From assembly GCF_024171735.1 (NCBI RefSeq), contig NZ_JAMTCH010000006.1, forward strand, positions 124,001 through 188,000: a stretch of DNA of 64,000 bases, given 5' to 3'. This DNA is from Prauserella alba (lineage in GTDB: Bacteria > Actinomycetota > Actinomycetes > Mycobacteriales > Pseudonocardiaceae). Under the pieces are notes generated by a model. The model did not search any database. It had not been told where the DNA came from and worked only from the letters and a program-made list of their open reading frames with translations. This document shows, piece by piece, positions 5,205 to 24,041 of the stretch. The position numbers and the translations under genes were made by a program. How positions within the stretch are numbered: the first letter of the stretch is position 1; the number at the start of each line of letters is the position of its first letter.

Positions 5205-5262
5205 CCGCCACCCCACCGGCCTGCCGGTGCCGGACTCGGCCGGCTTCGTAGACTGCTGCGCC

Positions 5263-7231: not shown

Positions 7232-8701
7232 TCAGCGGCCGCGGGCCAGGTAGCGGCCGACCGGGTCACCCTGCACCGTGCCGTCGGCGAACACGTGGTT
7301 GCCGCGCACGAAGGTGTCGGTGACTCTGGCCGTCATGTCGAAGCCCTCGAACGGCGTGTACTCCTGCGTGGATTCCGAGTCGGCCGCGCGCACCGTCCAC
7401 GTCGCGGTCGGGTCGACGAGCGCGATGTCGGCGTCGTAGCCCTCGGCGATCGTGCCCTTGTTGAGCAGGCCGTAGCGCCGGGCCGGATTCCACGACGTCA
7501 GCTTCGCGACCCGTTGCGGCGACAGGCCGCGCTTGGCGCCCTCGCCGACCAGCCCCGGCAGCAGGTACTCGGCGCCGCCGAACCCCGATTTCGCGACGAA
7601 CACGTCGTCACGGTCGTCGCCGAACTTCAGTTCGTCCTTGCAGCAGGCGTGATCGCTGACGACCCAGTCGACCTCACCGGCCAGCACGTGCCGCCACAGC
7701 GCCTCGACGTCCTCCCGTTCACGCAGCGGCGGGTTGACCTTGCCGCCGACGCCGCTGGCGGTGTCCACGTCGGCCAGCAGATGGCCGACCGTGATCTCCC
7801 TCCGGAAGTCCACGTGCGGGAACGTCCCCGCCATTCGCAGCGCCGCGTCCAGCGCCTTCTCCGACGACAGGTGCAGCAGGTTGATGTTCGGCAGGCCGGT
7901 CTCGTGAGCCAGGTACGACGCGATCGTCACGGCCAGGCCCTCCGAGTGGGGCGGGCGCGACCGGCTGTAGGCACGCAGCCCGGACAGCGACGGGTCCTGC
8001 TCGACGAGCTTCGTGTACGCGGTCATGATCTCCGCCGTCTCGCAGTGCAGTGACAGCGAGAGGTGATCGGCGTAGTCCGGCAGTGCCTCCCGTGCCGCCT
8101 GGATGCCGCGCATGACGAACTCGAAGTGCGCCAGGTCGTAGCGCTCCTCGGGCGGGATCATGAGGAAGTCGCTCTGACTCGCCGACCGCCCGTGGAGGCC
8201 GTGGCTGCCGTAGAACATGAAGATCTTGAACGACGTGACGCCGTGCTGTTCGACCAGGTACGGGATCTCGTCGATGTGCTGCGACATCATCGGCGCGAGG
8301 TGGAAGGCGTAGTCCACATAGGCGTTGCCGGACGCGGCCGAGAGCACCTCGGGGAAGAACTCGCGGTACGGGCCGCCCTTGTTGAGGTAGTACTGCCCGG
8401 TGCGCATGTAGGTCAGCGCCGTGGTCACCCCGCCCTGCGCGCTCGCCCTGCTCTCGGTGCGCGTGTCGGCGGGCAGCTCGTTGTAGATGCCCCAGTGCTG
8501 GTGCGCGTCCACCACGCCGGGGAACGCCAACAGGCCGCGGCCGTCGACGACGTTCGCGGCGTCCTCGCGCGACTGTCCACTCGCGACGCGCGCGATCGTA
8601 CCGTCGTTGACCGCGATGTCGGTCGTCTCCGGCGCCGCGTTGTCCGGATCGTCGGGGCGCACCACCCGGACATCGGTGATGAGCAGTTCCGTCGTCGCCA
8701 T
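7232..8701 (-). CDS. cyclic amidohydrolase (dihydropyrimidinase/hydantoinase-like)
   Basis: A 489-residue metal-dependent hydrolase of the dihydropyrimidinase/allantoinase group, which opens cyclic amides, imides or ureides. The binuclear centre is complete: D65-x-H67-x-H69 (VDAHQH), the lysine to be carboxylated K159 (TSFKIFMF), H219 (LHCETAE), H277 (LLHLSS) and D350 (VSDHACC). It is the last gene of the minus-strand operon, 12 bases after the FAD enzyme, with AAGGAG eight bases before its ATG. No carbamoylase or half-amidase gene follows it, so the ring-opened product must be processed by other genes here or elsewhere. Substrate unknown. Confidence 0.8.
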   Translation of the reverse strand: MATTELLITDVRVVRPDDPDNAAPETTDIAVNDGTIARVASGQSREDAANVVDGRGLLAFPGVVDAHQHWGIYNELPADTRTESRASAQGGVTTALTYMRTGQYYLNKGGPYREFFPEVLSAASGNAYVDYAFHLAPMMSQHIDEIPYLVEQHGVTSFKIFMFYGSHGLHGRSASQSDFLMIPPEERYDLAHFEFVMRGIQAAREALPDYADHLSLSLHCETAEIMTAYTKLVEQDPSLSGLRAYSRSRPPHSEGLAVTIASYLAHETGLPNINLLHLSSEKALDAALRMAGTFPHVDFRREITVGHLLADVDTASGVGGKVNPPLREREDVEALWRHVLAGEVDWVVSDHACCKDELKFGDDRDDVFVAKSGFGGAEYLLPGLVGEGAKRGLSPQRVAKLTSWNPARRYGLLNKGTIAEGYDADIALVDPTATWTVRAADSESTQEYTPFEGFDMTARVTDTFVRGNHVFADGTVQGDPVGRYLARGR

Positions 8702-8713
8702 CTGTCGTTCTCC

Positions 8714-10111
8714 TTACTGCGTGTGCGAATACCGCCGGGCCACGTCGTCGGCGGCCAGCCAGGCCAGGCCGAACGCCGGCAGCAGCCCGTTGCCCGGCAG
8801 ATAACCGGCGGCGCCGCGGCCGGAGATGCCGGCCGCCGCGCCACCTGCGGCGTACAGACCGGGGATCGGCCGGTCGTCGGCGTCGACGACGGCCGCGCGC
8901 TGGTCGACCAGCAGGCCTCCTTGCGTGTGGAACAGGGCCGGCACGACCCGGACGGCGGCGAGCCTGCCCGTCAGCGGGCGCTCCCAGTTGGTCCTGCCGA
9001 ACCGGTCGGGGCGCTCGCCGCGCGCGGCCGCGGTGCTGTCGGCGACCTCGGCGGCCAGCGCCGCCGCCGGCAGGCCGGTCACCTCGGCGAGCTCGGTGGC
9101 GTCGGCACCCCACACGACGGCGCCCGCGTCGACGTTGTCCTGGAAGTCGCGGAACGGCAGGCACTGCCGGTGGATCGTCTCGTCGATGACGATCCACCCG
9201 GTGGCCCCGCGCCGCGCGGCCAGTTCCGCCGCGTACTCCGAGTAGCCGCGGGTCTCGTCACCGAAGCGCCTGCCGTCGAGGTCGACGAGGATGCCGCCGT
9301 GGATGATCGTCGCCCACCCGACGAGCGTGCCGGACTTCGCGCCGACCGCGCCGTGTCCCTGGTAGGCGTCGAGGAAACCGGATGCGGCACCGAGCTTCCG
9401 CCCGATCCGCAGCGCGTCACCGAGCGAGTGCTCGCCGCCCTGGTACAGCGCCCCGGCGATCTCGGGCAGATGTTCGGCCACGAGACCGCGGTCGGCGCCG
9501 AAGCCGTTCGTGGCGAGCAACACCGCCCGGGTCGGGATCTCCTCCTCCGCACCGTCCGGGTACCGCACCACCACGGCACGCACGGCTCCGTCGTCGTCGA
9601 GCCGGACGTCGGTCAGCCGCGCAGGTGCCAGCAGCTCGATGCCGGGATGCTCACCGGCGCGGCGCGCGAGGTGATCGATCACTCCGGAGCCGTGCCTGCC
9701 CGGGATGGTGTGGCAGCGCGGGACCGTGTGACCGGGATAGTTGAAGTCGGTCACGAGCGACAACGGCAACCCCGCCGAGTCGGCGAGCCACTCCACCAGC
9801 GGGGCACTGATCTCGGCCAGTGTCCCGGCCAGCCGCGGGTCCGCGGTGCCGTGGGTCTTGGCCATGATGTCACCGACGAACCGTTCCGGCCCGTCGTCGA
9901 TCCCCGCGTCGGCCTGCCAGCGCGATCCGGCTCCGGGGAACATCGCCGTGGACATGGACGTGTTGTTGCCCCTGCGGAAGTGTTCGCTGGCCTCGACCAC
10001 GAGCACGCTGAGCCCGTGTTCGGCAGCGCGCAGGGCGCCGGCGAGACCGCCGCCGGCCCCGGCGACGACGAGGTCGGGCCCCTCGGTCTCGGTCGGGTCG
10101 GGACCGGTCAT
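8714..10111 (-). CDS. FAD-dependent oxidoreductase of the fumarate reductase/ketosteroid dehydrogenase type
   Basis: A 465-residue single-chain flavoprotein. An N-terminal Rossmann motif (LVVAGAGGGLAGALRAAEHG), the RGNNTSMS segment after the second strand, and a C-terminal FAD-binding end (GLYAAGGAAAGISGRGAAGY) place it with soluble fumarate reductase, KSTD and tricarballylate dehydrogenase-like enzymes. These add or remove hydrogens next to a carboxylate or keto group. Its ATG overlaps the stop of the racemase-family gene (ATGA), so the two are translationally coupled. In this operon it could desaturate or reduce a dicarboxylate intermediate; that is inference. No membrane anchor or heme domain is present. 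Confidence 0.8.
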   Translation of the reverse strand: MTGPDPTETEGPDLVVAGAGGGLAGALRAAEHGLSVLVVEASEHFRRGNNTSMSTAMFPGAGSRWQADAGIDDGPERFVGDIMAKTHGTADPRLAGTLAEISAPLVEWLADSAGLPLSLVTDFNYPGHTVPRCHTIPGRHGSGVIDHLARRAGEHPGIELLAPARLTDVRLDDDGAVRAVVVRYPDGAEEEIPTRAVLLATNGFGADRGLVAEHLPEIAGALYQGGEHSLGDALRIGRKLGAASGFLDAYQGHGAVGAKSGTLVGWATIIHGGILVDLDGRRFGDETRGYSEYAAELAARRGATGWIVIDETIHRQCLPFRDFQDNVDAGAVVWGADATELAEVTGLPAAALAAEVADSTAAARGERPDRFGRTNWERPLTGRLAAVRVVPALFHTQGGLLVDQRAAVVDADDRPIPGLYAAGGAAAGISGRGAAGYLPGNGLLPAFGLAWLAADDVARRYSHTQ

Positions 10112-10785
10112 GCGGTCGGCGCTCCTTCCACGGTCAGCAGCCGCAGCGCGAGCGCGGTCGGGTCGACGATGCGCGCGGCCAGGTCGGCGGGTTCGACGTC
10201 CACCGCGGAGCAGCCGTTGAGCACCGCGGTGGCTCCGCGCTCGGCGAGCCGGGTGACCGCCCCGCCGAGCGCGGCGTTCCAGGTGGCGGTGTCGGCGATG
10301 GCGTCGAACGGCAGGTCCAGCACCTCGACCCCCGCCGAGTACGCCACCAGACCGTACGCCGCGAGCCGCCGGGTCAGCTCCGCGGCGATCGCCTCGTTGC
10401 GGACGACAGCGCCGAACCGCTCGCCACGGGCCGCCAGCACCCCCGCCGAGAGCTTCAACAGCCCGTGGATCGTCGTGCCCGATGGCGCCGCGCCGCCGGT
10501 GCCGACCCCGGCGGGCACGGCCGGGTCCAGCACGCAATCGGGAAACGCCAGGTCCCAGCCCGCCGTCCGGTCGGCCAGTGCGGCGTCGAGCGCCGATGCG
10601 ACGGCCCGCTCCGAGACGCGCACAGCGGTATCGGTGTCCAGCGCCCCCGGCGCCGCCGGGCCGACATCGCGCAGCACGATCTCGAGTCCCGGCGGTGCCA
10701 GCCGGTCGTACCGGCTCTGCCGCCTGCGGATCTCCTCGTCCGGCAGCTGGATCGGGGTCACGGCCAGTGCACGTACCACGCTCAT
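10108..10785 (-). CDS. Asp/Glu-racemase superfamily protein
   Basis: A 225-residue enzyme-sized protein with the two-cysteine pattern of the aspartate/glutamate/hydantoin racemase and maleate isomerase superfamily: C84 in FPDCVLDP and C192 in LNGCSAVDVE, each at the end of a predicted strand in one half of the molecule. Such enzymes invert a carbon next to a carboxylate or isomerise maleate to fumarate. It overlaps its neighbours by four bases on both sides, between the MmgE/PrpD and FAD genes. The first half is divergent, so racemase, isomerase or decarboxylase activity cannot be chosen from sequence. Confidence 0.65.
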   Translation of the reverse strand: MSVVRALAVTPIQLPDEEIRRRQSRYDRLAPPGLEIVLRDVGPAAPGALDTDTAVRVSERAVASALDAALADRTAGWDLAFPDCVLDPAVPAGVGTGGAAPSGTTIHGLLKLSAGVLAARGERFGAVVRNEAIAAELTRRLAAYGLVAYSAGVEVLDLPFDAIADTATWNAALGGAVTRLAERGATAVLNGCSAVDVEPADLAARIVDPTALALRLLTVEGAPTA

Positions 10786-12221
10786 TCCTCCTTCTCCGGG
10801 GCAGCGCCGTCCGGGGCAGCGCCGTCCACGGCGGATCCGGTCGGGCAGCCGCCACCCGGAGCGGGTCCCGCGGGCACACCGGCGAGTCCACGCAGGGCGT
10901 CCCCGACCCGCGGCAAGGACGCGAACTCACGGCTGAACAGCGCCAGCCGGTCGAGCAGGTCGTCGTCGCCGAGCCAGCGGCGGAGCAGGTCGGTGACGGC
11001 GGCACGGCCGAACGGCCGGTGATCGGCGTCGCCGACCGGATTGGGCACCTCGGCGATGCGGGTGTCGCCGTCGGCGTAGCGCACGGTCACTCGGGTGGCG
11101 CGTTCCGCAGGCAGGCGGGCCGTCAGGTCGTCGGCGGCGACGACGGTCACCCTGCGGGCCAGCTCCCGCAGCCCCGGATCGTTCAGCCGGCCGGCGGCGT
11201 AGGTCTGCGGCCCGACGGCGCCGTCGAGGGCAGCGGCCGCGACGACGAACGGCGTCGAGAACATCGCCGACAACCGGTTGTCCCAGTCCACTCCGGACAA
11301 TCCGGCGCCCAGCCGGTGCGTCTCCACCTGCACCTCGGCGATGGGCCTGCCGTCGGCGAGTTCGAACATCGCGTCCGCTGCCGGGTGCGTGAACGAGCAC
11401 GACGCATGCCGCTTGAAGTAGCCGGCCGTGATGTCCCACCGCGTGCCCAGCCCTGCCGTGAGCTCGTGGGGATCGAACTCGCCCAGGAGCGCCCCGAGCG
11501 ACAGGCCCGCGGTGCCGGTGTTCCTGGCGACGCCGGCGCTCGCCATGCGCGCGGCGGCGAGACCGGAGGTGTTGGCGGCCCCGAGCCAGGCGTCCCGGAC
11601 CGGATTGCCGGTCGTCGCGGAGTCGAAGTGACCGGCGATCGGCATGCCGGCTCCGGTGTCGACGGCGGCTGCGCACGCCTCGGGACCGAGGCCGAGGAGC
11701 CGGGCACATCCGGCCGCCGCGCCCGCGACGCCCCAGTTGCCGTGCGGGTGCGCTCCCGCACGCAGACCGGTGGCGCGGCCGAACCGGGCCGCCACCTCGT
11801 ACGCGGCCAGCAGCGCCGCGGCGGTGTCATCGCCGGAGGAGTCGCGCTCCGCCGCGAGTGCCAGCACCGCGGGAAACCCGTGTACCGCGGGATGCCCCTT
11901 GGCGTATTTGTTGCCCTCGTCGAGCTCGAGACACGCCATCGCCACGGCGTTCAGCCACGCCGCGGTGTCGATCGGCGCCCTCTCTCCCGTACCGAACAGC
12001 GGGGCCGGCCCGGTCGGTGCGGTCCACGCCCGCCGCAACGCGGTCTGGTCGGCTGTCCTGGCGCCCACCGCGGCGACGCCCACGACGTCGAGCACCACGA
12101 GACCGAGCCGGTCGACGACGGCGGCCGGCACCGCGGCGAGGTCCAACCGCGACACCCACTCACCGAGTCCTGCCGTGGCGGCCACCGCGGGAGTCCCCGA
12201 CATCGTCGTGTGCCTGTCCAT
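10782..12221 (-). CDS. MmgE/PrpD family protein (first of two)
   Basis: A 479-residue member of the family that includes methylcitrate dehydratase, cis-aconitate decarboxylase and iminodisuccinate epimerase. Family traits are LELDEGNKYAKGHPAVHGFPA (about residues 99-119) in place of the common DFDDTH, and GYFKRHASCSFTHPAADAM. The C-terminus carries a short duplicated Asp-Gly-Ala-Ala-Pro tail from a 15-base tandem repeat. The ATG at 12221 overlaps the livF stop as TGATG; a GTG lies one codon upstream. The second MmgE/PrpD in the divergent operon differs at the active-site segment, so the two probably act on different steps. Confidence 0.8.
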   Translation of the reverse strand: MDRHTTMSGTPAVAATAGLGEWVSRLDLAAVPAAVVDRLGLVVLDVVGVAAVGARTADQTALRRAWTAPTGPAPLFGTGERAPIDTAAWLNAVAMACLELDEGNKYAKGHPAVHGFPAVLALAAERDSSGDDTAAALLAAYEVAARFGRATGLRAGAHPHGNWGVAGAAAGCARLLGLGPEACAAAVDTGAGMPIAGHFDSATTGNPVRDAWLGAANTSGLAAARMASAGVARNTGTAGLSLGALLGEFDPHELTAGLGTRWDITAGYFKRHASCSFTHPAADAMFELADGRPIAEVQVETHRLGAGLSGVDWDNRLSAMFSTPFVVAAAALDGAVGPQTYAAGRLNDPGLRELARRVTVVAADDLTARLPAERATRVTVRYADGDTRIAEVPNPVGDADHRPFGRAAVTDLLRRWLGDDDLLDRLALFSREFASLPRVGDALRGLAGVPAGPAPGGGCPTGSAVDGAAPDGAAPEKEE

Positions 12222-12922
12222 CACAGTCCCAGGTACGCCTTCCGCACACGTTCGTCGTCGGCGAGTTCGCCGCCACCGCCGGACAGCACGACCGATCCGC
12301 TCTCCATGACGTAGGCCCGGTCGGCGATGGCCAGTGCCTGCTTCGCGTTCTGCTCCACGAGCAACACCGACACTCCGGTGTCACGAACCTCGCGCACCGC
12401 GTCCAGCATCGTCCAGGTCAACTTCGGCGACAGGCCGGTCGACGGTTCGTCGAGCAGCAACAGCCGCGGTCCCGCCATCAACGCGCGCCCGATCGCGAGC
12501 ATCTGCTGCTGGCCGCCGCTGAAGGTCTGCGCCACCTGGCCGCGGCGCTCGGCGAGGATCGGGAACAGTTCGTACACCTGGTCCAGCCGCGTCGTCGTAT
12601 CCCCGGCCGACGCGGTCCACGCTCCCATCCGGAGGTTCTCCTCGACGGTCAACGTGCCGAACAGAGCGCGGTCCTCGGGCACGTGCACCAGCCCGTCCCG
12701 CACGAGCATGTCGGGCCTGCGCCCCGCCGTGTCGGCGCCGTCGAACACGATTCGCCCCGAATGCGGTGCGAGCTGCCCGCAGATGCTGCGCAGCGCCGTG
12801 GTCTTGCCCGCGCCGTTCGCGCCGACCAATGCGACCAGTTCCCCCGCGCCGACGTGCAAGTCCACTTCGTGCAGGATGCGCATGCGCCCGTATCCGGCGC
12901 TCAGTTTCTCAAGCGTCAGCAT
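12221..12922 (-). CDS. livF: branched-chain amino acid-type ABC transporter ATP-binding protein LivF
   Basis: A 233-residue ATPase of the HAAT importer family: Walker A GANGAGKTT, signature TFSGGQQQMLAIGRAL, Walker B LLLLDEPSTGL and the switch histidine region replaced by LLVEQN, as is normal for LivF. It pairs with LivG on the cytoplasmic face of LivH-LivM. It overlaps livG by 14 bases and touches the MmgE/PrpD gene, so importer and enzymes are one transcript. Confidence 0.9.
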   Translation of the reverse strand: MLTLEKLSAGYGRMRILHEVDLHVGAGELVALVGANGAGKTTALRSICGQLAPHSGRIVFDGADTAGRRPDMLVRDGLVHVPEDRALFGTLTVEENLRMGAWTASAGDTTTRLDQVYELFPILAERRGQVAQTFSGGQQQMLAIGRALMAGPRLLLLDEPSTGLSPKLTWTMLDAVREVRDTGVSVLLVEQNAKQALAIADRAYVMESGSVVLSGGGGELADDERVRKAYLGL

Positions 12923-13646
12923 GGGGCGTCGGCTCCTCCCCGAGGTAGGCGTCGATCACGCGCGGGTCGGCCGTGACCTCGTCGGGCGTGCCGGTGGCCA
13001 GCACGGCGCCCTGGTCCATGACCAGCACGCGGTCGGACAACCGCATCACCGCGGCCATGATGTGCTCGATGAACACCAGCGTCGTGCCGTCCTGCTGCCG
13101 GAGCTCGGCCAGCAGGTCGAGGACGGGCTCACGCTCGGCGGGCAGCAGGCCGGCGAGCACCTCGTCGAGCAGCAGCACCCGCGGCCGCGCGGCGAGCGCC
13201 CTGGCCAGTTCGAGCCGTTTCAGGCCGGCCGTCGGCAGTTCGGTGGCACGCCGGTGCGCCCACTCCGTCAGTCCGACCCGCTCGACGACCTCCATGGCAC
13301 GCTCGCGCAGCCGCTCCGGCCCACGCGTGTGGTGCTGCGCGGCCAGGCTCACGTTCTCCGCCACCGTCATGCTCGCGAACGGCCGCATCAGCTGGAAGGT
13401 CCGCACCATGCCACGACGTGCGATCTTCTCCGGCTTGCGGCCGGTCACGTCACTGCCGTCGAAGTGCACCGAACCCGCATCGGGCTTCAGCGCACCGCAG
13501 ATCACGTTGAACAGCGTCGTCTTGCCGGCGCCGTTCGGGCCGATCACCCCGACGATCTCGCCCTCCGACACGGACATCTCCACATCGGACAGGGCGTGCA
13601 GGCCACGGAACTTCTTGTCCACGCCGGACAGTTCGAGCACACTCAT
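12909..13646 (-). CDS. livG: branched-chain amino acid-type ABC transporter ATP-binding protein LivG
   Basis: A 245-residue ATPase with Walker A GPNGAGKTT, Walker B RVLLLDEVLAGLLPAE and the LivG-type C-terminal ADPRVIDAYLGEE. The signature region reads LPTAGLKRLELARAL, where LSxGxQ is expected. The central Gly is kept but the first residues deviate (PTAG in place of SYGQ or SGGQ), a mild oddity. The ATG sits inside the livM stop (ATGA). Confidence 0.9.
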   Translation of the reverse strand: MSVLELSGVDKKFRGLHALSDVEMSVSEGEIVGVIGPNGAGKTTLFNVICGALKPDAGSVHFDGSDVTGRKPEKIARRGMVRTFQLMRPFASMTVAENVSLAAQHHTRGPERLRERAMEVVERVGLTEWAHRRATELPTAGLKRLELARALAARPRVLLLDEVLAGLLPAEREPVLDLLAELRQQDGTTLVFIEHIMAAVMRLSDRVLVMDQGAVLATGTPDEVTADPRVIDAYLGEEPTPHADA

Positions 13647-14707: not shown

Positions 14708-15699
14708 GTTCGCCTCCCGAACAATCCTTGCGGACGCAGGAACAGCACCAGCACGAACACCACGAACACGCCGAGCAGGGAGCTCTGGCCGTCGAGATAG
14801 ATCGTGGTGAGCTGTTCGACCAGGCCGATCAGCAGCCCGCCGACGAGCGCGCCGACGACGTTGCCCATGCCACCGAGGACCACCACGACGAACGCGGTGA
14901 TGTTGAACTGCTCGCCCAGCGTCGGCGTGACCGAGAGCAGCGGCACGGCCAGCGCCGCCGCCGCACCGGCACAGGCTGCGCCGATGGCGAAGGTCAACGT
15001 GTGGATCCGGCGCACATTGATACCGACCAGTTCGGCCCCGGGACTGTTGGACGCGACCGCGCGGATCGCCGTGCCGAGCCGGGTGTGCTGCAACATCCAG
15101 TACAGCACCAGGCCGAGTGCCACGGCGCCCAGGAACGCGTACAGCCGCGACCCGGATACCACGGCGCCGAACACGTCGAGGTGCGTCTCGCCCGGCAACG
15201 TCACGTTCTTCGGCTCCGCCCCGAGGAACAGCAGCAGTCCGTTCTCCAGCAGCAGCGACAGTCCGAGCGTGATGAGCAACTGGTTCTCCAGCGTTGCTCC
15301 GCCTGCACCGGACAGCAGTCCGCGGTGCACGAGCGCACCGACGAGGAACAGGGCGGGCACGGTCACCAGCATCGTCAGGTACGGGTGCAGTCCGGTCACC
15401 GCCACCACGCCGAACGAGAGGAACATGGCCACGGCCAGCATCGCGCCGTGGGCGAAGTTCACGATGTCGAGCACGCCGAAGATCAGCGTGAGGCCCATCG
15501 CGATCAATCCGTACAGCCCGCCGGTCAGCAGGCCGGTCACCACCGACTGCCAGACCACGATGCCGCTGCCGGACTGAATCAGCGCGACGGCGATGGCCAC
15601 CGCCACCAGAGCGCCCACGACCCCGGCGCGCTTCAGGACCGCGACCGTGGCCGACGGCGCCCGCGTTTCCGGAGCGTCACTGTCGATCGTCGCCGTCAT
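14704..15699 (-). CDS. livH: branched-chain amino acid-type ABC transporter permease LivH
   Basis: A 331-residue permease with the LivH signatures GLYGLIAMGLTLIFGVLDIVNFAHG (the central part spans about residues 62-85) and VVVLGGMGNVVGALVGG near the C-terminus. Translation can start at ATG 15699 or at a GTG at 15705 that overlaps the livK stop (GTGA); I list the ATG. The overlap with livM is ATGA. The cargo is set by LivK and is not necessarily an amino acid; HAAT importers also carry amides, urea and aromatic or dicarboxylic acids. Confidence 0.88.
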   Translation of the reverse strand: MTATIDSDAPETRAPSATVAVLKRAGVVGALVAVAIAVALIQSGSGIVVWQSVVTGLLTGGLYGLIAMGLTLIFGVLDIVNFAHGAMLAVAMFLSFGVVAVTGLHPYLTMLVTVPALFLVGALVHRGLLSGAGGATLENQLLITLGLSLLLENGLLLFLGAEPKNVTLPGETHLDVFGAVVSGSRLYAFLGAVALGLVLYWMLQHTRLGTAIRAVASNSPGAELVGINVRRIHTLTFAIGAACAGAAAALAVPLLSVTPTLGEQFNITAFVVVVLGGMGNVVGALVGGLLIGLVEQLTTIYLDGQSSLLGVFVVFVLVLFLRPQGLFGRRT

Positions 15700-15701
15700 C
15701 G

Positions 15702-16943
15702 TCACCACGCCACCGAGTAGTCTGGGTCGGATTCGGCCTTCTCCGGGGGATACACCTGTTTCACCCGTCCGTTCTGAATCTGCATGAGCACCGCGGCCGA
15801 GTTCACGTTCTCCCCGTCCGGACCGAACCGGACCGGGCCGTCGCCGACGGTGAGGGGGTCGATCTCCGCGCGGGCGATCCCGTTGCGCACGGCCGCCGGG
15901 TCGGTGCTGCCCGCCTCCTCGACACCGGCGGCGATGGCCTGGACCGCGTCGTAGGACAGGACCGCACCGGTGCGCATCGGTGCTCCGAACCGCTGTCGGT
16001 ACTCCTCGCGCAACCTCCGGGTCTCGGGGTTCTGCGCGTCGAAGTGATAATTGGTGCTGAAGTACCGGTCGCCGAGTTCGCCGGCGTCGGACACGAATTT
16101 CGGCTGGTCGTAGGCGCCGTTCGAGACGCCCCACACCGCGTCGAGATCAGGTTTCACGGCATCGACGGCCTGCGCGATGAGCAGGCTGTCGCCGTAGTAA
16201 CCGGCGACGACGAGCACATCGGCGCCGGAGGCCTTGACCTGTGTGATCTGCGAGGTGAAGTCCGAGGCCGTGGTCGCGTCGTAGCTGATCCGCGGGCCGA
16301 CCTCCATGCCCAGCTTCTCCGCCGCCGTCTCGAAGGCGTCGGCCGCACCGGTGCCGAAATCCGTGTGCTCGTGGAGCACGGCGACCCGCTCGGCGGGTTT
16401 GCCCGCCTGTTCGGAGACCTGTTCGAGGTACTCGGCCGCCGACTCGGAGATCTTGGCGCTGCCCGGCTGCACCCGGAACGAGTAGCGGTAGCCGTGCTGG
16501 AAGATCTCGTCCGATGCGGTCACGTCCATGACGAACGGCACCTCGTTGCGCTCTGCCACGACGGCCACGTTGCTGCTGACCGAACTCTGGTAGGTGCCGA
16601 TCAGGCCGACCGCGCCGTCCGAGATCAGGCGCTGGGCCTCGCTCTGGCCGATCTCGGGCTTGCCCTGTGTATCCGCGGTCGCCAGCCGAACCTCTCGGCC
16701 GCCGAGCGAGGCGATGCCGCCGGAGTCGTTGATCTGTTCCACCGCGAGCTGCGCGCCGCGACGCATCTGCAGTCCGTCGACCGCCATCGACCCACTGACC
16801 GGGTGCAGTGCCCCGATCCTGACCGGACCGTCACCGCTACCGGCAGCGTCCCCCGCGGCGCCGGACGGCGCGGAACCACCGCAGCCCGCGGTCGCGAGCA
16901 GTGAACCCGCACCGAGGACGGCGATCAGCCTGCGAACGATCAT
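15702..16943 (-). CDS. livK: ABC transporter substrate-binding lipoprotein, LivK type
   Basis: A 413-residue periplasmic-binding-fold lipoprotein. The signal peptide ends in a lipobox LLATAGC with C21 as the lipidated residue, followed by a Gly/Ala/Ser linker. The mature domain opens VRIGALHPVSGSMAVDGLQM and contains GTYQSSVS and HEHTDFGTGAADAF, as in type I (Leu/Ile/Val-type) receptors. As the first gene of the nine-gene operon it is expressed at the top of the transcript. The promoter region carries two RTTCC-N7-GAAAC-like elements. The ligand is unknown but is presumably the compound catabolised by the downstream enzymes. Confidence 0.88.
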   Translation of the reverse strand: MIVRRLIAVLGAGSLLATAGCGGSAPSGAAGDAAGSGDGPVRIGALHPVSGSMAVDGLQMRRGAQLAVEQINDSGGIASLGGREVRLATADTQGKPEIGQSEAQRLISDGAVGLIGTYQSSVSSNVAVVAERNEVPFVMDVTASDEIFQHGYRYSFRVQPGSAKISESAAEYLEQVSEQAGKPAERVAVLHEHTDFGTGAADAFETAAEKLGMEVGPRISYDATTASDFTSQITQVKASGADVLVVAGYYGDSLLIAQAVDAVKPDLDAVWGVSNGAYDQPKFVSDAGELGDRYFSTNYHFDAQNPETRRLREEYRQRFGAPMRTGAVLSYDAVQAIAAGVEEAGSTDPAAVRNGIARAEIDPLTVGDGPVRFGPDGENVNSAAVLMQIQNGRVKQVYPPEKAESDPDYSVAW

Positions 16944-16966
16944 CTCTGATCCCTGTTCCCTGAAGT

Positions 16967-17001
16967 GTTCCGCCGAAAGAAGTTGTTCCGCTTAGAGAAA
17001 C
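16967..17001. promoter_or_regulatory. double IclR-type operator before livK
   Basis: GTTCC-N7-GAAAC occupies 16985-17001, and a degenerate copy GTTCC-N7-GAAGT occupies 16967-16983, exactly 18 bases away. They begin 24 bases upstream of the livK ATG (minus strand). The full copy has the same half-sites and spacing as 17140-17156 and 6293-6309. A regular 18-base phase is compatible with side-by-side binding of IclR dimers. Confidence 0.6.
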
Positions 17002-17139
17002 ATCATTCTGAAGTTGAGCTATCGTGACACCGACCGCAGCGATAGGTCAACAACCCTGCACAGCTTGACTACACGCGGTCAGCGGTGCCAACTTGAACCA
17101 CCGGGGACGCCGGAGTCGCGAAACATGGCGGTTATCGTT

Positions 17140-17156
17140 GTTCCCCTAAACGAAAC
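17140..17156. promoter_or_regulatory. IclR-type operator before the CoA-transferase gene
   Basis: GTTCC-N7-GAAAC identical in both half-sites to 16985-17001, on the other side of the divergent intergenic region. It ends 26 bases before the CoA-transferase start used here and two bases before an alternative ATG at 17159, which makes that alternative start less likely. Confidence 0.6.
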
Positions 17157-17182
17157 GCATGACGAAAGGCAGGTACCGCCCC

Positions 17183-18370
17183 ATGACGGGCGCATTGTCG
17201 GGAATCCGCGTCCTGGACGTGGCCACGCTGTTCGCCGGCCCATTGGCCGCGACCACGCTCGCCGATTACGGGGCCGAGGTCATCAAGATCGAGCACCCCA
17301 ACGGCGATCCGGTCCGCAACCACGGCGCGCAGCGCGACGGTGTCGGCCTGTGGTGGAAGCTGCTGGGACGCAACAAGAAAGCCGTCACGCTCTACCTCGG
17401 CTCTCCCGAAGGTCAGGAGATCTTCCGCGAGATGGTCGCCGACGCGGACGTGGTGATCGAGAACTTCCGTCCCGGCACGCTCGAACGCTGGGGTCTCGGC
17501 TACGACGAGCTCCGCAAGATCAACCCCGGGATCGTCCTCACCCGCGTCACCGGGTTCGGCCAGGTCGGGCCCTACGCCAAGCGCCCCGGGTTCGGCACCC
17601 TCGCCGAGGCCATGAGCGGCTTCGCCGCCATCACCGGCGAACCGGACGGCCCGCCGATGCTGCCGCCGTTCGGGCTCGCCGACGGCATCGCGGCGCTGGC
17701 GACGGCCTTCGCCGTGACGACGGCCCTGCGCGCGAGGGAACAGACCGGCCAGGGCCAGGTCGTCGACATGGCCATCATCGAGCCGATCCTGACCCTGCTC
17801 GGACCGCAGATCATCGCCTACGACCAGCTCGGCGTGCTGCAGGAGCGCACCGGTAACCGTTCGAGCAACAACGCGCCGCGCAACACCTACCGCACCAGGG
17901 ACGGCAGCTGGGTCGCGATCTCCACCAGCGCCCAGTCGATCGCCGAGCGCGTCATGCGGCTCGTGGGCAGGCCCGAGTTCATCGACGAGCCCTGGTTCGC
18001 CAGCGGGGCCGAACGGGCGAAGCACGCCGACGAACTCGACGAGGCGGTCGGCTCGTGGATCGCCGCGCGCGACCGCGACGAGGTCATCACGGCCTTCGAG
18101 GAGGCCCAGGCCGCGATCGCGCCGATCTACACGGCGGCCGACATCGTCGAGGACCCGCAGTTCCAGGCACTCGGCACGATCGCCACCCTGCCCGACGACG
18201 AACTCGGGCCCGTGCGGATGCAGAACGTGCTGTTCCGCATGTCCGAGACGCCGGGTGCGATCAACTGGACGGGCGCGCCGGTGGGGGCGCACACCGAGGA
18301 GGTCCTCGGCGGGTACGGCGTGACGCCGCAGCGGCTGGCCCGGCTCCGCGAACAGGGGGTCGTACGGTGA
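17183..18370 (+). CDS. class III (CaiB/BaiF) CoA-transferase
   Basis: A 395-residue CoA-transferase of the formyl-CoA/succinyl-CoA transferase fold. The opening VLDVATLFAGPLAATTLADYGAEVIKIE is split by domain interlocking later; the catalytic aspartate is D167 in FGLADGIAAL, equivalent to D169 of formyl-CoA transferase, and ENFRPGTLERWGL is the usual CoA-binding region. It would move CoA from a donor such as succinyl-CoA onto the pathway acid. It opens the plus-strand operon. I chose the ATG at 17183 (AAAGGCAGG about 10 bases upstream); 17159 would add eight residues. The lyase gene follows in a GTGA overlap. Confidence 0.88.
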   Translation: MTGALSGIRVLDVATLFAGPLAATTLADYGAEVIKIEHPNGDPVRNHGAQRDGVGLWWKLLGRNKKAVTLYLGSPEGQEIFREMVADADVVIENFRPGTLERWGLGYDELRKINPGIVLTRVTGFGQVGPYAKRPGFGTLAEAMSGFAAITGEPDGPPMLPPFGLADGIAALATAFAVTTALRAREQTGQGQVVDMAIIEPILTLLGPQIIAYDQLGVLQERTGNRSSNNAPRNTYRTRDGSWVAISTSAQSIAERVMRLVGRPEFIDEPWFASGAERAKHADELDEAVGSWIAARDRDEVITAFEEAQAAIAPIYTAADIVEDPQFQALGTIATLPDDELGPVRMQNVLFRMSETPGAINWTGAPVGAHTEEVLGGYGVTPQRLARLREQGVVR

Positions 18371-19206
18371 CGGCACCGGTGCGGACGTGGCTCTACGTTC
18401 CCGCCGACCGCCCGGAGCGGATCGCCAAGGCCCTGGCATCGGACGCCGACGCCGTGATCCTCGACCTCGAGGACGCCGTGGCCCCGGACGCCAAGGAGCG
18501 GGCGCGGCGCAACGTCGTCGCGGCGCTCGCCGACGGCCACCGCGCCTACGTGCGCGTCAACGAGTCCGGCACTCCACACGGGACGGCCGATGTGGACGCA
18601 CTCGTCGCCGCTTCCGTCCCGCCGGCAGGGGTCCGGATTCCCAAGTGCGAGGACCCGGCGCAGCTGAGCGGGGTCGCCGAGCGACTCGGCGTGCCCGTGT
18701 ACCCGATCGTCGAGTCGGCACGGGGCGTGGAATGCGCCTACGCCCTCGCCACCGCGCACCCTCTCGTGTCGGGCATCTCCCTCGGTGAGGCCGACCTCGC
18801 CGCGGACCTGCGCGTCACCGATCGGAACGCGCTCACCTGGGCGAGGTCCCGGGTGGTCGTGGCCGCTCGCGCGGCGGGCCTGCCCAGCCCCGCGCAGAGT
18901 GTGTGGACCGCGGTCCGCGACCTCGACGGCCTGCGCGCCGACACCGATGAGGGGCGGCGGGCGGGTTTCTTCGGCCGGTCGGTCATCCACCCGGAGCAGA
19001 TTCCCGTGGTGCACGCGGCCTGCCGCCCCGACCCCGACGACGTGGCGTGGGCGCGGTCGCTTGTGGACACGGTGCGTGATTCCGGCGAGGCGGCGTGGAT
19101 CGACTCCACGGGCCGCTTCGTCGACAAAGCGGTCGTCGAGCGAGCGCTGTGGCTGCTCGCGATCGCCGACGAGGACCAGAACGGCAAGGAAGGCCAGACG
19201 TCATGA
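18367..19206 (+). CDS. CitE-like HpcH/HpaI-family acyl-CoA lyase
   Basis: A 279-residue TIM-barrel lyase of the citrate lyase beta/malyl-CoA lyase group. Key segments are RTWLYVPADRPERI at the N-terminus, VILDLEDAVAPDAK with acidic metal ligands, YVRVNE, and ISLGEADLAADL with a further acidic ligand; GRSVIHPEQI closes the barrel. Related enzymes cleave malyl-CoA, citramalyl-CoA or HMG-CoA-like esters to acetyl-CoA plus an oxoacid. Directly behind a CoA-transferase it most likely cleaves the activated beta-hydroxy acid. GTG start within the previous stop; the stop overlaps the cyclase ATG. Confidence 0.85.
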   Translation: MTAPVRTWLYVPADRPERIAKALASDADAVILDLEDAVAPDAKERARRNVVAALADGHRAYVRVNESGTPHGTADVDALVAASVPPAGVRIPKCEDPAQLSGVAERLGVPVYPIVESARGVECAYALATAHPLVSGISLGEADLAADLRVTDRNALTWARSRVVVAARAAGLPSPAQSVWTAVRDLDGLRADTDEGRRAGFFGRSVIHPEQIPVVHAACRPDPDDVAWARSLVDTVRDSGEAAWIDSTGRFVDKAVVERALWLLAIADEDQNGKEGQTS

Positions 19207-20024
19207 CACGTTCCCAGGACCCGCTGCTCGCCGCCGTTTCCGGCGGGGTCCGGCTCTACGAGCTCGGGCAGCCCTTCTTCACGGGCATGCCGTGTTCGCC
19301 GAACCATCCGGGTTTCCGGATGACGCTCATCCGCAGACACGGCGACATGGAACGCCCCGACGGCGGTTCGGCCGCCAACGAGATCATCGTCACCGGCGGC
19401 CACGTCGGCACCCACATCGACGCGCTCTCGCACGTGAGCCACTGCGGCGAGCTCCACGGCGGGGTCGACGCGGCCGAGGCACAGCAGGGCGGCACGTTCA
19501 GCACGCACGGGGCGGAGAACCTGCCGGGCCTGCTGCGGCGCGCGGTGCTGCTCGACGTGGCGGCCGTCCACGGTGTGCCGACGCTGCCCGCAGGGTACGG
19601 CGTCACCGCCGACGACCTCGCCGCGGCCGCCGAGCTTGCGGGTGCCGAACCGGGGCGGGGCGACGTCGCACTGGTGCGCACCGGCTGGGCACGCCACTTC
19701 GCGGACTCGGCGACCTACATGGGCAAGGAGACAGGTGTGCCGGGTCCGACCGTCGAGGCGGGACGGTGGCTGGCCGATCGGGGCGTCGTCGCGACCGGCG
19801 CCGACACCACGGCCTACGAACAGATCCCCGCGGGAGCGGGACACGCCGTCCTGCCGGTGCACCGAGTGCTGCTGGTCGAGTCGGGCATCTTCATCATGGA
19901 ACACCTCAACCTCGAGGAGATCGCCGACGTGGGCGTCCGCGAGTTCAGCTTCCTGCTCGCTCCGCTGCGCATCACCGGCGGCACCGGTTCGCCGATCCGC
20001 CCGCTCGCGGCGGTGAGCGCATGA
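19203..20024 (+). CDS. cyclase-family metal hydrolase (kynurenine formamidase/isatin hydrolase-like)
   Basis: A 273-residue protein of the PF04199 cyclase family, recognised by the metal motif HVGTHIDALSHV (HxGTHxDxxxH) near residue 64 and the partner segment TGADTTAYEQ. Family members hydrolyse formamide or lactam bonds (kynurenine formamidase, isatin hydrolase). It overlaps both neighbours by ATGA. Together with the cyclic amidohydrolase of the divergent operon, it gives the locus two distinct amide/lactam-opening activities. Confidence 0.85.
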   Translation: MTRSQDPLLAAVSGGVRLYELGQPFFTGMPCSPNHPGFRMTLIRRHGDMERPDGGSAANEIIVTGGHVGTHIDALSHVSHCGELHGGVDAAEAQQGGTFSTHGAENLPGLLRRAVLLDVAAVHGVPTLPAGYGVTADDLAAAAELAGAEPGRGDVALVRTGWARHFADSATYMGKETGVPGPTVEAGRWLADRGVVATGADTTAYEQIPAGAGHAVLPVHRVLLVESGIFIMEHLNLEEIADVGVREFSFLLAPLRITGGTGSPIRPLAAVSA

Positions 20025-21424
20025 GCACGCTGGTGCAACGCCTCGCCCGGCTGGCGTCGGCGACTCGCGACGACGGCCTCGCCCCGGAACTACGGGACGA
20101 CGTCGCACGCCGGGTTCTCGACGTACTCGGCAACAGTCTCGCCGCGACGGCGGAACCACCCGCCGAGGCGGTCGGCAGGCTCGTCCGGGAATGGGGCGGC
20201 GCGGGCCGGTCGACGGCCATCGGCGCACAACCCGTGCCGGAGCCGAGCGCCGCCCTGCTGAACGGCACGCTCGCCCACTCGCTCGACTTCGACGACACGC
20301 ACCTGCCGTCGGTGCTCCACCCGTCGGCGTCCGTGGTACCCGCTGCGTTGGCCGTCGCCGAGTCACGGGGCGCGAGCGGCGCGCAGCTGCTCGATGCGAT
20401 CGGTGTGGGCATCGAGGTGGCGGTGCGGCTCGGAATGGCCGGCTACGACTCGGACCTCGGCAACTCGGTGTTCTTCGAGCACGGCCTGCACGCCACGGCG
20501 ATCTGCGGCGCGGTCGGCGGCGCCGTGTCGGCGGCGATGCTGTCCGGTGTGGACACCGACGGCATCGCCGACACGGTGGGGATCGCGGCGAGCATGGGCT
20601 CCGGTCTGCTCGAGGCGAACCGCACGGGCGGCACGGTCAAACGGATCCACTGCGGATGGGCCGCACACGCCGCCGTGACGGCCGCCGGGCTCGCGCGCGC
20701 CGGCATCACCGGTCCGCCGACCGTACTCGAAGGCCGGTTCGGCATGCTGCAGGCGTTCTGCGGCGACCGGGTCGACCTCGACGCCGTCACGACCGGGCTC
20801 GGCGAGCGGTGGGAGCTGCCGGGGATCTTCTTCAAGCCCTACCCGTGCAACCACTTCACCCACGCCGGCATCGACGCGGCGCTGCGGCTGCGGGCCCGCG
20901 GGATCGATCCCTCGGCGATCGAGAGCATCGAGCTCGGAGCACCCACGGCGGTGTTGCGGACCATCGGCCAGCCACCCGCGGAGAAGGCGGTCCCCAAGTC
21001 GGGGTACCACGCGGCGTTCTCCGGCCCGTACACCGTGGCCGCGGCGCTACTCGGGGGCGGCGGGCTCGGCGTGTTCCACGAGGACTTCACCGACGCCGCG
21101 GCCGCCGATCCGGACCGGCTGGCGCTCGCAGCCAGGGTGACGTGCGTTCCCGACGCGGAATGCGACCGGATCTTCCCGCACCAGTTCCCCGCGGTGCTGC
21201 GGGTTCGGCTGTCCGACGGCATCGAACTCAGCGAGCGCGTCGACGTCAACCGGGGTGGCCACGGCAATCCGCTGTCGGCCGACGAGCTCGCGACGAAGTT
21301 CCGGCTGAACGCCACGCGTGCCGTCACCGACGCGCGCGCCGAGCGGATCACCGAGCTCACCTACGGACTGGCCGGGCTACCCGACGTCACGGCGCTGACC
21401 GGGGAACTCGTCACCGACGCCTGA
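20021..21424 (+). CDS. MmgE/PrpD family protein (second of two)
   Basis: A 467-residue member of the methylcitrate dehydratase/cis-aconitate decarboxylase/iminodisuccinate epimerase family with the canonical NGTLAHSLDFDDTHLPSVLH segment near residues 81-100, the GGTVKRIHCGWAAHAA motif and FFKPYPCNHFTHAGIDAAL. It closes the plus-strand operon and is followed by a strong hairpin. Compared with the first MmgE/PrpD it retains the classical DFDDTH loop. A dehydration, hydration or epimerisation of a hydroxy- or amino-dicarboxylate is the reasonable guess. Confidence 0.82.
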   Translation: MSTLVQRLARLASATRDDGLAPELRDDVARRVLDVLGNSLAATAEPPAEAVGRLVREWGGAGRSTAIGAQPVPEPSAALLNGTLAHSLDFDDTHLPSVLHPSASVVPAALAVAESRGASGAQLLDAIGVGIEVAVRLGMAGYDSDLGNSVFFEHGLHATAICGAVGGAVSAAMLSGVDTDGIADTVGIAASMGSGLLEANRTGGTVKRIHCGWAAHAAVTAAGLARAGITGPPTVLEGRFGMLQAFCGDRVDLDAVTTGLGERWELPGIFFKPYPCNHFTHAGIDAALRLRARGIDPSAIESIELGAPTAVLRTIGQPPAEKAVPKSGYHAAFSGPYTVAAALLGGGGLGVFHEDFTDAAAADPDRLALAARVTCVPDAECDRIFPHQFPAVLRVRLSDGIELSERVDVNRGGHGNPLSADELATKFRLNATRAVTDARAERITELTYGLAGLPDVTALTGELVTDA

Positions 21425-22522: not shown

Positions 22523-22543
22523 GCCCCCAGTCTGCGCCGAATA

Positions 22544-22560
22544 GTTCGGGAAAACCGAAC
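22544..22560. promoter_or_regulatory. LysR-type box GTTCGG-N5-CCGAAC
   Basis: A perfect 6-5-6 inverted repeat 22 bases upstream of the dgdR start and 58 bases upstream of dgdA. It has the T-N11-A format of LysR recognition sites, so it is the probable DgdR recognition site. Confidence 0.65.
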
Positions 22561-22571
22561 AGCGGCGTCGA

Positions 22572-22592
22572 CATCGTGTGATGGACACGATG
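22572..22592. promoter_or_regulatory. perfect palindrome CATCGTGT-N5-ACACGATG before dgdA
   Basis: An 8-5-8 perfect inverted repeat 26 bases upstream of the dgdA ATG. It has different half-sites from the neighbouring GTTCGG element. It could be the LysR activation site or the target of a second regulator, since its position would overlap the dgdA promoter or transcript start. Confidence 0.6.
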
Positions 22593-22608
22593 CAACGCAG
22601 CTTCGTAG

Positions 22609-23901
<1,293 letters not shown>

Positions 23902-23902
23902 C

Positions 23903-23925
23903 CCGAACCCGGCGGCCGGGTTCGG
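23903..23925 (+). terminator. hairpin terminator after dgdA
   Basis: CCGAACCCGG pairs perfectly with CCGGGTTCGG across a 3-base loop, starting one base after the dgdA stop codon. Confidence 0.75.
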
Positions 23926-23985
23926 TGTGCTGCCGCCTCTCCGGTGCGCCGGTCGCCGTGCTCGTCCCTGACGTGGACCGAGAGT

Positions 23986-24000
23986 GTAAACTTTGTTTAC
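23986..24000. promoter_or_regulatory. perfect palindrome GTAAAC-TTT-GTTTAC before the SDR gene
   Basis: A 6-3-6 perfect inverted repeat, strikingly AT-rich for this window, 41 bases upstream of the SDR start. The layout suits a TetR-family operator, and a TetR gene lies just beyond the SDR. That pairing is inference. Confidence 0.6.
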
Positions 24001-24041
24001 CTTAGTTGAGCGACGGCCCGCGCATCCGCCGGAGGCAGCCC

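What the first reader, a model, noticed from the sequence alone, without database searches (positions are those of the whole stretch)
7232..21424. Candidate undescribed catabolic pathway: Liv importer, cyclic amidohydrolase, FAD dehydrogenase, racemase-family enzyme, two MmgE/PrpD, CoA-transferase, CitE lyase and cyclase
The gene set forms no pathway I can name. A consistent reading is import of a cyclic amide, imide or amino-dicarboxylate, opening of the ring (amidohydrolase, cyclase-family hydrolase), rearrangement or desaturation of a C4-C6 dicarboxylate (racemase family, FAD enzyme, MmgE/PrpD), CoA activation and retro-aldol cleavage to acetyl-CoA plus an oxoacid. Itaconate/mesaconate degradation shares the CoA-transferase and CitE steps; EDDS degradation shares an MmgE/PrpD epimerase; neither explains the whole set.
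Basis: inference. Interest (0 to 1): 0.75.

Follow-up and report, generated by a model that had tools for sequence, protein, structure and literature searches.

The report
Self-contained cyclic-amide breakdown regulon
A soil actinobacterium carries a block of genes, apparently switched by a single regulator, that looks like a complete kit for importing an unknown small ring-shaped nitrogen compound, opening the ring and breaking it down to central metabolites; the kit recurs in many actinobacteria but its food is not known.

Summary
In detail: every enzyme and transporter named is intact at 7232-21424, in two divergent operons. It is no chance neighbourhood. In a 396-genome phylum sample the amidohydrolase is found in 21 and the cyclase in 25 genomes, 20 shared (expected 1.3). 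The two operons look co-regulated: a 17-bp IclR-type near-palindrome lies at both starts and, at up to one mismatch, nowhere else in the 5.6-Mb genome; all 25 exact sites in 32 cluster-bearing genomes lie inside this cluster. A FAD gene on another contig in an Actinomadura has its own perfect site. Known catalytic residues are conserved in the core enzymes. The racemase folds most like allantoin racemases, the amidohydrolase is allantoinase/hydantoinase-like, and hydantoinase A/B-type genes lie nearby in two other genomes (one by eye). Best reading: import of a chiral five-membered cyclic amide (most likely an imide of a branched succinate), desaturation, ring opening, loss of ammonia, hydration, CoA transfer, retro-Claisen cleavage. 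Substrate and reactions are inferred, not shown. No description was found in the papers searched.

The parts
6316..7203 (+). IclR-family regulator, the likely controller of the cluster
   Evidence: PF01614/PF09339; nearest NCBIfam model BhcR 153.3 bits, below its cut-off of 350; an IclR of this type found in 55 of 60 loci of 20 kb or more
7232..8701 (-). AH: metal-dependent cyclic amidohydrolase (allantoinase/dihydropyrimidinase/dihydroorotase-like), predicted ring opening
   Evidence: PF01979; AllB 215.9 bits, below cut-off 357.85; PDB allantoinase 8hfd E 9.2e-39; H67, H69, K159, H219, H277, D350 at least 97% conserved in 81 sequences
8714..10111 (-). FAD: FAD_binding_2 enzyme, predicted C-C desaturase next to a carbonyl
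   Evidence: PF00890; aligned to flavocytochrome c3: arginine position is Y290; Y290, H253 and H395 at least 97% conserved in 86 sequences
10108..10785 (-). RAC: Asp/Glu/hydantoin racemase superfamily, allantoin-racemase-like
   Evidence: AlphaFold pLDDT 91.9; best PDB fold allantoin racemase 3qvj, TM 0.74, 17% identity; C84 and C192 at least 97% conserved in 85 sequences, each just after a strand
10782..12224 (-). MMG1: divergent MmgE/PrpD protein, optional member
   Evidence: PF03972/PF19305; aligned to IDS epimerase 2hp0: H99, H150 and K266 positions kept, H85 to A, Y145 to L, K198 not Lys (positions matched by spacing)
12221..12922 (-). LivF ATPase
   Evidence: PF00005
12909..13646 (-). 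LivG ATPase
   Evidence: PF00005 and PF12399
13643..14707 (-). LivM permease
   Evidence: PF02653
14704..15699 (-). LivH permease
   Evidence: PF02653
15702..16943 (-). LivK solute-binding protein; ligand unknown
   Evidence: PF13458; best PDB match 8wch E 1.7e-42
16985..17001 (.). IclR-type operator, LivK-proximal site
   Evidence: GTTTCTCTAAGCGGAAC on the minus strand, 0 mismatches to the consensus, which was drawn from this family of regions
17140..17156 (.). IclR-type operator, CoA-transferase-proximal site, 155 bp from the first
   Evidence: 1 mismatch; site pair present in 27 of 28 intergenic regions with 155-156 bp spacing
17159..18370 (+). CoAT: family III CoA-transferase
   Evidence: PF02515 419.3 bits; D175 conserved in 84 sequences
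18367..19206 (+). CitE/HpcH-type CoA-ester lyase
   Evidence: PF03328; RipC citramalyl-CoA lyase 158.5 bits, below cut-off 375; R63, E116, D143 conserved in 79 sequences
19203..20024 (+). CYC: PF04199 metal-dependent amide hydrolase, predicted half-amide (or second ring) hydrolase
   Evidence: PF04199 93.8 bits; HxGTHxDxxxH motif (H67, G69, T70, H71, D73, H77) conserved in 72 sequences
20021..21424 (+). MMG2: MmgE/PrpD, predicted hydratase of a 1,4-dicarboxylate
   Evidence: PF03972 200.4 bits; H86, D89, H100, F152, H157, K207, K272 at least 97% conserved in 42 sequences

Best explanation
This is one IclR-controlled, self-contained catabolic regulon. LivKHMGF imports a small chiral five-membered cyclic amide, most likely an imide of a branched succinate. 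RAC inverts the ring stereocentre so that both enantiomers can be used; the FAD enzyme desaturates the ring next to a carbonyl; AH opens the ring to a half-amide; CYC removes the amide nitrogen and gives a free unsaturated 1,4-dicarboxylate; MMG2 hydrates it to a 2-hydroxy-dicarboxylate; CoAT makes its CoA ester; CitE cleaves that to an acyl-CoA plus a 2-oxoacid. MMG1 is an optional accessory step on a related acid or half-amide. SHOWN by computation: the gene set, its co-conservation, the shared operator, conserved catalytic residues, and the families. INFERRED: that the neighbouring IclR is the regulator, each reaction, their order, and the substrate class.
For: AH in 21 and CYC in 25 of 396 genomes, 20 shared (p). 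Of 19 other AH genomes whose surroundings were fetched (one of the 20 was not), 17 have AH on the same contig as at least three of CoAT, CitE, CYC and MMG2. The operator, at up to one mismatch, occurs only at these two places in 5.6 Mb; 25 of 25 exact sites in 32 cluster-bearing genomes are in the cluster, against one site of the backward control pattern; it fits the published IclR group-1 consensus GKTYCRYW3-4RYGRAMC (PMC8222616, passages). A FAD gene on another contig has the operator just upstream. RAC fold: allantoin racemases first; AH: allantoinase/hydantoinase relatives, and a dihydropyrimidinase hydrolyses the imide phthalimide (PMC4437985, passages). Annotated hydantoinase A/B-type proteins plus an amidase sit beside the cluster in Rhodococcus gordoniae, and HyuA/HyuB-like genes, by eye, follow three lower-module genes in L178. 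Known MmgE/PrpD substrates share a four-carbon 1,4-dicarboxylate, and the methylsuccinate isomerase does not use CoA esters (PMC12290011, sections 11, 13, 14), which argues for nitrogen removal before MMG2 and CoAT after it.
Against: No substrate, no expression data and no activity. None of the ten cluster proteins scanned (AH, FAD, RAC, MMG1, LivK, CoAT, CitE, CYC, MMG2, IclR) reaches the cut-off of a NCBIfam family among those shown. The racemase and AH families suit a hydantoin at least as well as an imide. CYC relatives on nicotine-associated plasmids (35% identical) seem to be the protein proposed to open a pyridine ring rather than cleave a half-amide (PMC6214936, passages), so AH and CYC could swap or share roles. 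Transporters vary between clusters. MMG1 has lost residues that bind the dicarboxylate in IDS epimerase. Of 57 distinct operator-like sites in other layouts, 27 are not within 300 bp upstream of a cluster gene start. Three loci have RAC and FAD without the other core genes.
Confidence: 0.45

Rival explanations
1. The substrate is a hydantoin or related ureide, not an imide. RAC and AH act as hydantoin racemase and hydantoinase, CYC removes the N-carbamoyl group, and the MmgE/PrpD proteins act on an N-substituted or 3-substituted aspartate-like acid before CoA activation.
For: RAC folds like allantoin/hydantoin racemases; AH nearest to allantoinase and also matches hydantoin-5-propionate amidohydrolase ErtD, 193.9 bits, cut-off 650; IDS epimerase, an N-substituted aspartate epimerase, is the best PDB hit of MMG1.
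Against: No classical N-carbamoylase among the cluster proteins; the CoA-transferase/lyase end is not needed for an aspartate-type product; the tyrosine of the epimerase is absent in both MmgE/PrpD proteins.
Confidence: 0.22
2. The substrate is a lactone or other oxygen ring of a branched di- or tricarboxylate; AH and CYC are lactonases and no nitrogen is released.
For: Amidohydrolase-superfamily enzymes include lactonases (recalled); FAD relatives include the tricarballylate dehydrogenase TcuA family, 126.8 bits, cut-off 369; the product end is carboxylate chemistry.
Against: RAC and AH belong to ring-nitrogen families; hydantoinase A/B-type genes and an amidase keep company with the cluster (by eye).
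Confidence: 0.12
3. The pathway handles a pyridine-derived six-membered imide such as citrazinate, opened to an aconitate half-amide.
For: A PF04199 protein is proposed to open trihydroxypyridine (PMC6214936, passages); citrazinate is the imide of aconitate (recalled).
Against: Aconitate would not need CoA-transferase and lyase; no hydroxylase is among the cluster genes; the nearest racemase folds act on five-membered rings.
Confidence: 0.07
4. Two unrelated operons that happen to lie side by side.
For: The lower genes also occur apart from AH and FAD: all four on a Streptantibioticus plasmid stretch, CoAT, CitE and MMG2 on two Burkholderia plasmid stretches.
Against: Same operator at both starts with constant 155-156 bp spacing in 27 of 28 regions; 20 of 21 AH genomes also have CYC.
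Confidence: 0.04

Closest known systems
Itaconate/methylsuccinate degradation cluster (Ict, Ich, Ccl, Mcd, Msi; PMC12290011)
   Same: CoA-transferase, CitE-type lyase and an MmgE/PrpD protein; ends in cleavage of a CoA ester. A cluster with these product names lies next to ours on a Rhodococcus plasmid.
   Different: No MaoC hydratase and no acyl-CoA dehydrogenase here; desaturation and hydration are predicted before CoA transfer; ring-opening hydrolases and a racemase are added.
Allantoin/hydantoin utilisation (racemase plus allantoinase or hydantoinase)
   Same: Racemase fold and amidohydrolase family; works like it at the ring stage.
   Different: Below the family cut-offs; no classical N-carbamoylase or allantoate enzymes in the cluster; goes on to CoA chemistry.
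Cyclic-imide routes: bacterial imidase (reference titles only; half-amidase recalled) and Aspergillus HxnM/HxnN (PMC9304392, passages)
   Same: Imide opened to a half-amide, then deamidated to a dicarboxylate (predicted here).
   Different: HxnM resembles a peptidoglycan-deacetylase-like protein and HxnN a FAAH-type amidase; no CoA-transferase or lyase was seen in those passages.
Nicotine and 2-hydroxypyridine lower pathways (PKC, HpoH plus omega-amidase; PMC6214936, passages)
   Same: PF04199 hydrolase thought to act on a ring amide; CYC is 35% identical to cyclases on nicotine-associated plasmids.
   Different: Six-membered aromatic substrate, product 2-oxoglutaramate, no CoA chemistry there.
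EDDS/iminodisuccinate epimerase
   Same: MmgE/PrpD family; best PDB hit of MMG1.
   Different: Catalytic tyrosine and other residues not conserved; no EDDS lyase among the cluster genes.

Membership tests
IclR regulon | 17-18 bp palindrome of the IclR group-1 type at the controlled operons | tested here: met
IclR regulon | the neighbouring IclR protein binds the sites | not testable with these tools
   needs EMSA or footprinting
Cyclic amidohydrolase superfamily (AH) | four His, one Lys and one Asp of the binuclear metal site | tested here: met
   H67, H69, K159, H219, H277, D350 at least 97% in 81 sequences; ligand set as in PMC9863593 (passages), positions assigned by motif
Allantoinase AllB | curated NCBIfam cut-off 357.85 bits | tested here: not met
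   215.9 bits
Asp/Glu/hydantoin racemase superfamily (RAC) | fold and two catalytic cysteines | tested here: met
   fold; C84 and C192 invariant in 16 sequences and at least 97% in 85
MmgE/PrpD (MMG2) | His/Asp/His/His/Lys/Lys set that holds a 1,4-dicarboxylate | tested here: met
   H86, D89, H100, H157, K207, K272, matched to the 2hp0 residues by motif spacing, by hand
MmgE/PrpD (MMG1) | the same set | tested here: inconclusive
   H99, H150 and K266 positions kept, D88 to E, H85 and K198 not kept
Two-base MmgE/PrpD epimerase (IDS epimerase, methylsuccinate isomerase) | catalytic Tyr145/148 | tested here: not met
   Leu in MMG1, Phe152 in MMG2 (hand alignment)
Fumarate reductase (FAD) | catalytic Arg402 of flavocytochrome c3 | tested here: not met
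   Tyr290 at that position; residue role recalled
Itaconate degradation | MaoC-type itaconyl-CoA hydratase in the cluster | tested here: not met
   none among the cluster proteins scanned
Itaconate degradation | lyase reaches the RipC cut-off of 375 bits | tested here: not met
   158.5 bits
Hydantoin utilisation | N-carbamoylase | tested here: inconclusive
   no classical one among the cluster proteins; CYC could serve, untested
Family III CoA-transferase | Pfam family and catalytic Asp | tested here: met
   419.3 bits; D175 conserved, catalytic role recalled

The most novel reading that the evidence does not exclude
The regulon is a dedicated, previously undescribed actinobacterial pathway for chiral cyclic imides of branched succinates such as those left by tetrapyrrole breakdown. 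For hematinic acid imide the predicted chain would end in a 2-methylhomocitryl-CoA-like ester that CitE cleaves to propionyl-CoA and 2-oxoglutarate: a bacterial fate for a pigment residue whose genes are not known to me.
Probability: 0.1. Interest if true: 0.85.

Novelty: new variant of a known kind. Interest (0 to 1): 0.55.

Why it matters
It turns a loose list of enzymes into one bounded problem: a regulon with a defined operator, an importer and eight enzymes, found in many Actinomycetota and also on a plasmid. One ligand for LivK or one inducer would name the substrate. It would add a route in which desaturation and hydration come before CoA-lyase chemistry, and give functions to several orphan subfamilies (MmgE/PrpD, PF04199, allantoin-racemase-like).

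Tried and rejected
Rejected: (1) IDS/EDDS epimerase role for the MmgE/PrpD pair, on the missing tyrosine. (2) Tricarballylate-dehydrogenase or fumarate-reductase membership for FAD, on cut-offs and the Arg-to-Tyr change. (3) Membership of LysR (21599-22588), class III aminotransferase (22618-23901) and SDR (24006-25055): they follow MMG2 in 3 of 4 other Prauserella stretches and in none of the three other Pseudonocardiaceae stretches fetched (L193-L195). (4) Membership of the D-threonate-type kinase/PdxA2/GntR genes upstream: seen in 4 of 80 loci. (5) A paper describing the set: none seen in the listings (0 papers; 2; 6; 25, 10 listed); the isonicotinate/citrazinate search gave one unrelated paper; the maleimide/tetrapyrrole search listed 7 papers, none with a bacterial maleimide pathway as far as titles and abstract starts show. 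(6) A fold search of CYC was not run because its model is poor (mean pLDDT 63.1). (7) FAD missing from two Actinomadura clusters (L042, L044) first looked like evidence against FAD; a 78% copy exists on another contig in both genomes.

Limits of the counts. Identity cut-offs and E-value cut-offs were set by me; the overlap of 20 was read off the two lists, which name the same handles, and kinship is not corrected for. One search uses 28 regions: the window plus the 27 of 80 loci with divergent CoAT and LivK 50-600 bp apart; the rest have another layout or are cut. Searches cover 85 other loci (L051 and L054 are in neither set), some of them overlapping stretches of one genome: 48 of 85 have a site, 37 have none at up to one mismatch; 64 raw sites are 57 distinct ones. 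In one search, 12 of 32 genomes had no exact site, three of the four other Prauserella among them. The consensus was drawn from the regions in which it was then counted, but searched other sequence. Names of transporters, HyuA/HyuB in L178 and isochorismatase-type hydrolases in unannotated loci were read by eye. LivG was used in the tblastn scripts with its last residues missing.


Full report
WHAT IS THERE. The window lies in a 5.61-Mb genome in 11 contigs. Minus-strand order from the promoter: LivK, LivH, LivM, LivG, LivF, MMG1, RAC, FAD, AH. Plus-strand order: CoAT, CitE, CYC, MMG2. Eight of eleven junctions overlap by 4 bp, as in coupled operons. An IclR gene (6316-7203) converges on AH.

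IT IS CONSERVED AS A SET. A scan of genome contigs with the racemase alignment gave 80 loci. tblastn of the window proteins shows the same genes in nearly the same order in Prauserella, Amycolatopsis, Nocardia and Actinomadura, and rearranged or partial in Micromonospora, Pseudonocardia, Saccharopolyspora, Streptomyces and aquatic actinobacterial MAGs. In the 60 loci of at least 20 kb, AH is seen in 54, FAD 59, CoAT 55, CitE 56, CYC 54, MMG2 50, IclR 55, MMG1 54, LivK 36; all six core enzymes in 46, at least five in 53; in three (L061, L065, L088) only RAC and FAD of the core set are seen. These loci were chosen by the racemase, so an independent sample was taken: of 396 Actinomycetota genomes, AH is found in 21 at E up to 1e-80, CYC in 25 at E up to 1e-60, both in 20, expected 1.3, hypergeometric p about 5e-28 without correction for kinship (the window's genome counted in both). 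Of the other 20 AH genomes, 19 were fetched and 17 have AH on the same contig as at least three of CoAT, CitE, CYC and MMG2; the exceptions are a short contig and a genome with the two parts on different contigs.

TWO MODULES. The lower module (CoAT, CitE, CYC, MMG2) is better conserved than the upper one: in L139-L142 CoAT is 68-74%, CYC and MMG2 58-62% identical to ours while AH and FAD are 42-46%, and RAC and MMG1 are not seen. Four of the five genomes with CYC but no AH at the cut-off carry at least three genes of the lower module; one of these has a weaker AH at its contig end. All four lower genes lie on a Streptantibioticus plasmid stretch, and CoAT, CitE and MMG2 on two Burkholderia plasmid stretches, without AH or FAD there. 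In L178 CoAT, CYC and MMG2 are followed by genes that read by eye as hydantoinase A/B; on a Rhodococcus gordoniae plasmid the full core lies beside annotated hydantoinase A/B-type proteins, an amidase and a methylsuccinate-type set (CoA ester lyase, acyl-CoA dehydrogenase, MmgE/PrpD, CoA-transferase, MaoC). Transporters vary: Liv, an MFS protein, or by eye other ABC types.

ONE REGULON. The intergenic region between LivK and CoAT holds two copies of a near-palindrome, GTTYCNCTNAGNGGAAC, at 16985-17001 and 17140-17156, the only matches with up to two mismatches in the window. With up to one mismatch these are the only sites in the whole genome. Of 28 such regions 27 have both sites, with starts 155 or 156 bp apart although the regions vary from 235 to 290 bp; letter-shuffled regions had one site in 5 of 1400 and never two. 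In 85 loci with other layouts 48 have at least one site, 64 in all or 57 distinct, against 0-1 in six resampled sets. Thirty of the 57 lie within 300 bp upstream (or up to 60 bp inside) of a start of iclR, FAD, MMG1, LivK, AH or CoAT; 27 do not. Of those 27, five lie at or within 190 bp of the start of the MFS gene (L074, L076, L089, two in L104; coordinates), nine lie past CoAT in five Micromonospora/Asanoa loci, and the others were not resolved. In 32 cluster-bearing genomes (about 269 Mb by my sum of rounded sizes) there are 25 exact sites in 20 genomes, every one in the cluster, including one beside iclR in each of G113 and G090; the backward control pattern gave one palindromic site. In Actinomadura sp. 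KC345 the FAD gene is on another contig, yet a perfect site lies just upstream of it; the same could not be tested in strain 7K507, whose contig ends there. The motif fits the published group-1 IclR consensus (PMC8222616, passages). Constant spacing of two sites suggests looping by a tetramer; that is inference. In this genome the site marks only these two operons, which speaks for a complete pathway from the imported compound.

THE ENZYMES. AH keeps the six metal-site residues and is closest to allantoinases and hydantoinases, below the curated cut-offs shown. RAC has both cysteines and a confident model whose four best PDB matches are allantoin racemases; an atypical fungal racemase-family protein and a hydantoin racemase follow. 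FAD aligns along its length with flavocytochrome c3 but has tyrosine at the catalytic arginine, as I recall for ketosteroid dehydrogenases, and keeps two histidines. MMG2 keeps the residues that hold a 1,4-dicarboxylate and has Phe instead of the epimerase Tyr; MMG1 is divergent. CYC has the PF04199 metal motif. CoAT and CitE keep their recalled catalytic residues. Known MmgE/PrpD substrates share a succinate backbone, and the methylsuccinate isomerase does not use CoA esters (PMC12290011, sections 11, 13, 14).

HOW IT PROBABLY WORKS. Racemase and amidohydrolase families and the company of hydantoinase A/B-type genes point to a five-membered cyclic amide. A dicarboxylate must be free for MMG2 and CoAT, so nitrogen should leave first: AH opens the ring, CYC cleaves the amide. 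MMG2 then hydrates, CoAT and CitE finish. FAD is placed at ring level. An imide of a branched succinate uses every core enzyme once, which is why I prefer it; a hydantoin leaves the CoA end unexplained. Order and substrate are inference. A PF04199 protein proposed to open a trihydroxypyridine ring (PMC6214936, passages) shows that AH and CYC could share or swap roles.

STATUS. No paper describing the set was seen in the open-access library searched (one library, word searches, capped listings). I rate it a new variant of a known kind: known enzyme families in a new, tightly regulated combination with unknown substrate.

Noticed in passing
window 2614-6159: D-threonate-kinase-like protein and PdxA-family dehydrogenase followed by a GntR gene: probably a four-carbon acid-sugar operon; seen next to the cluster in 4 of 80 loci, all Prauserella.
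   Followed up: partly
window 21599-25055: LysR, class III aminotransferase and SDR genes follow the cluster in three other Prauserella, not in the other stretches fetched for this.
   Followed up: partly
L202:8196-9616: FAD gene of Actinomadura sp. KC345 on another contig, beside what reads by eye as a dipeptide-type ABC transporter, with its own perfect IclR operator.
   Followed up: yes
L145:856-22008: Rhodococcus gordoniae plasmid pDND3A carries a methylsuccinate-type set, hydantoinase A/B-type genes, an amidase and this cluster in one block.
   Followed up: partly
L147:10855-16395, L149:12097-20445: Lower-module genes on Burkholderia stagnalis and Streptantibioticus plasmids near an isochorismatase-type hydrolase and an MFS protein (read by eye); perhaps another upper module.
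   Followed up: no
window 16985-17156: Between the two operators lie further conserved blocks (CAAGTTnGCAC, GTCAAGTT...TTGACC, CACGAT) that look like divergent promoters or a second regulator site.
   Followed up: no
L099:15190-16698, L183:15261-16646: Further MmgE/PrpD paralogues (30-33% identical to MMG1 or MMG2) beside some clusters.
   Followed up: no
L057:14678-14781, L067:14718-14824: Operator-like sites past the CoAT gene in Asanoa and Micromonospora loci, unexplained by the cluster genes; another gene may be controlled there.
   Followed up: no
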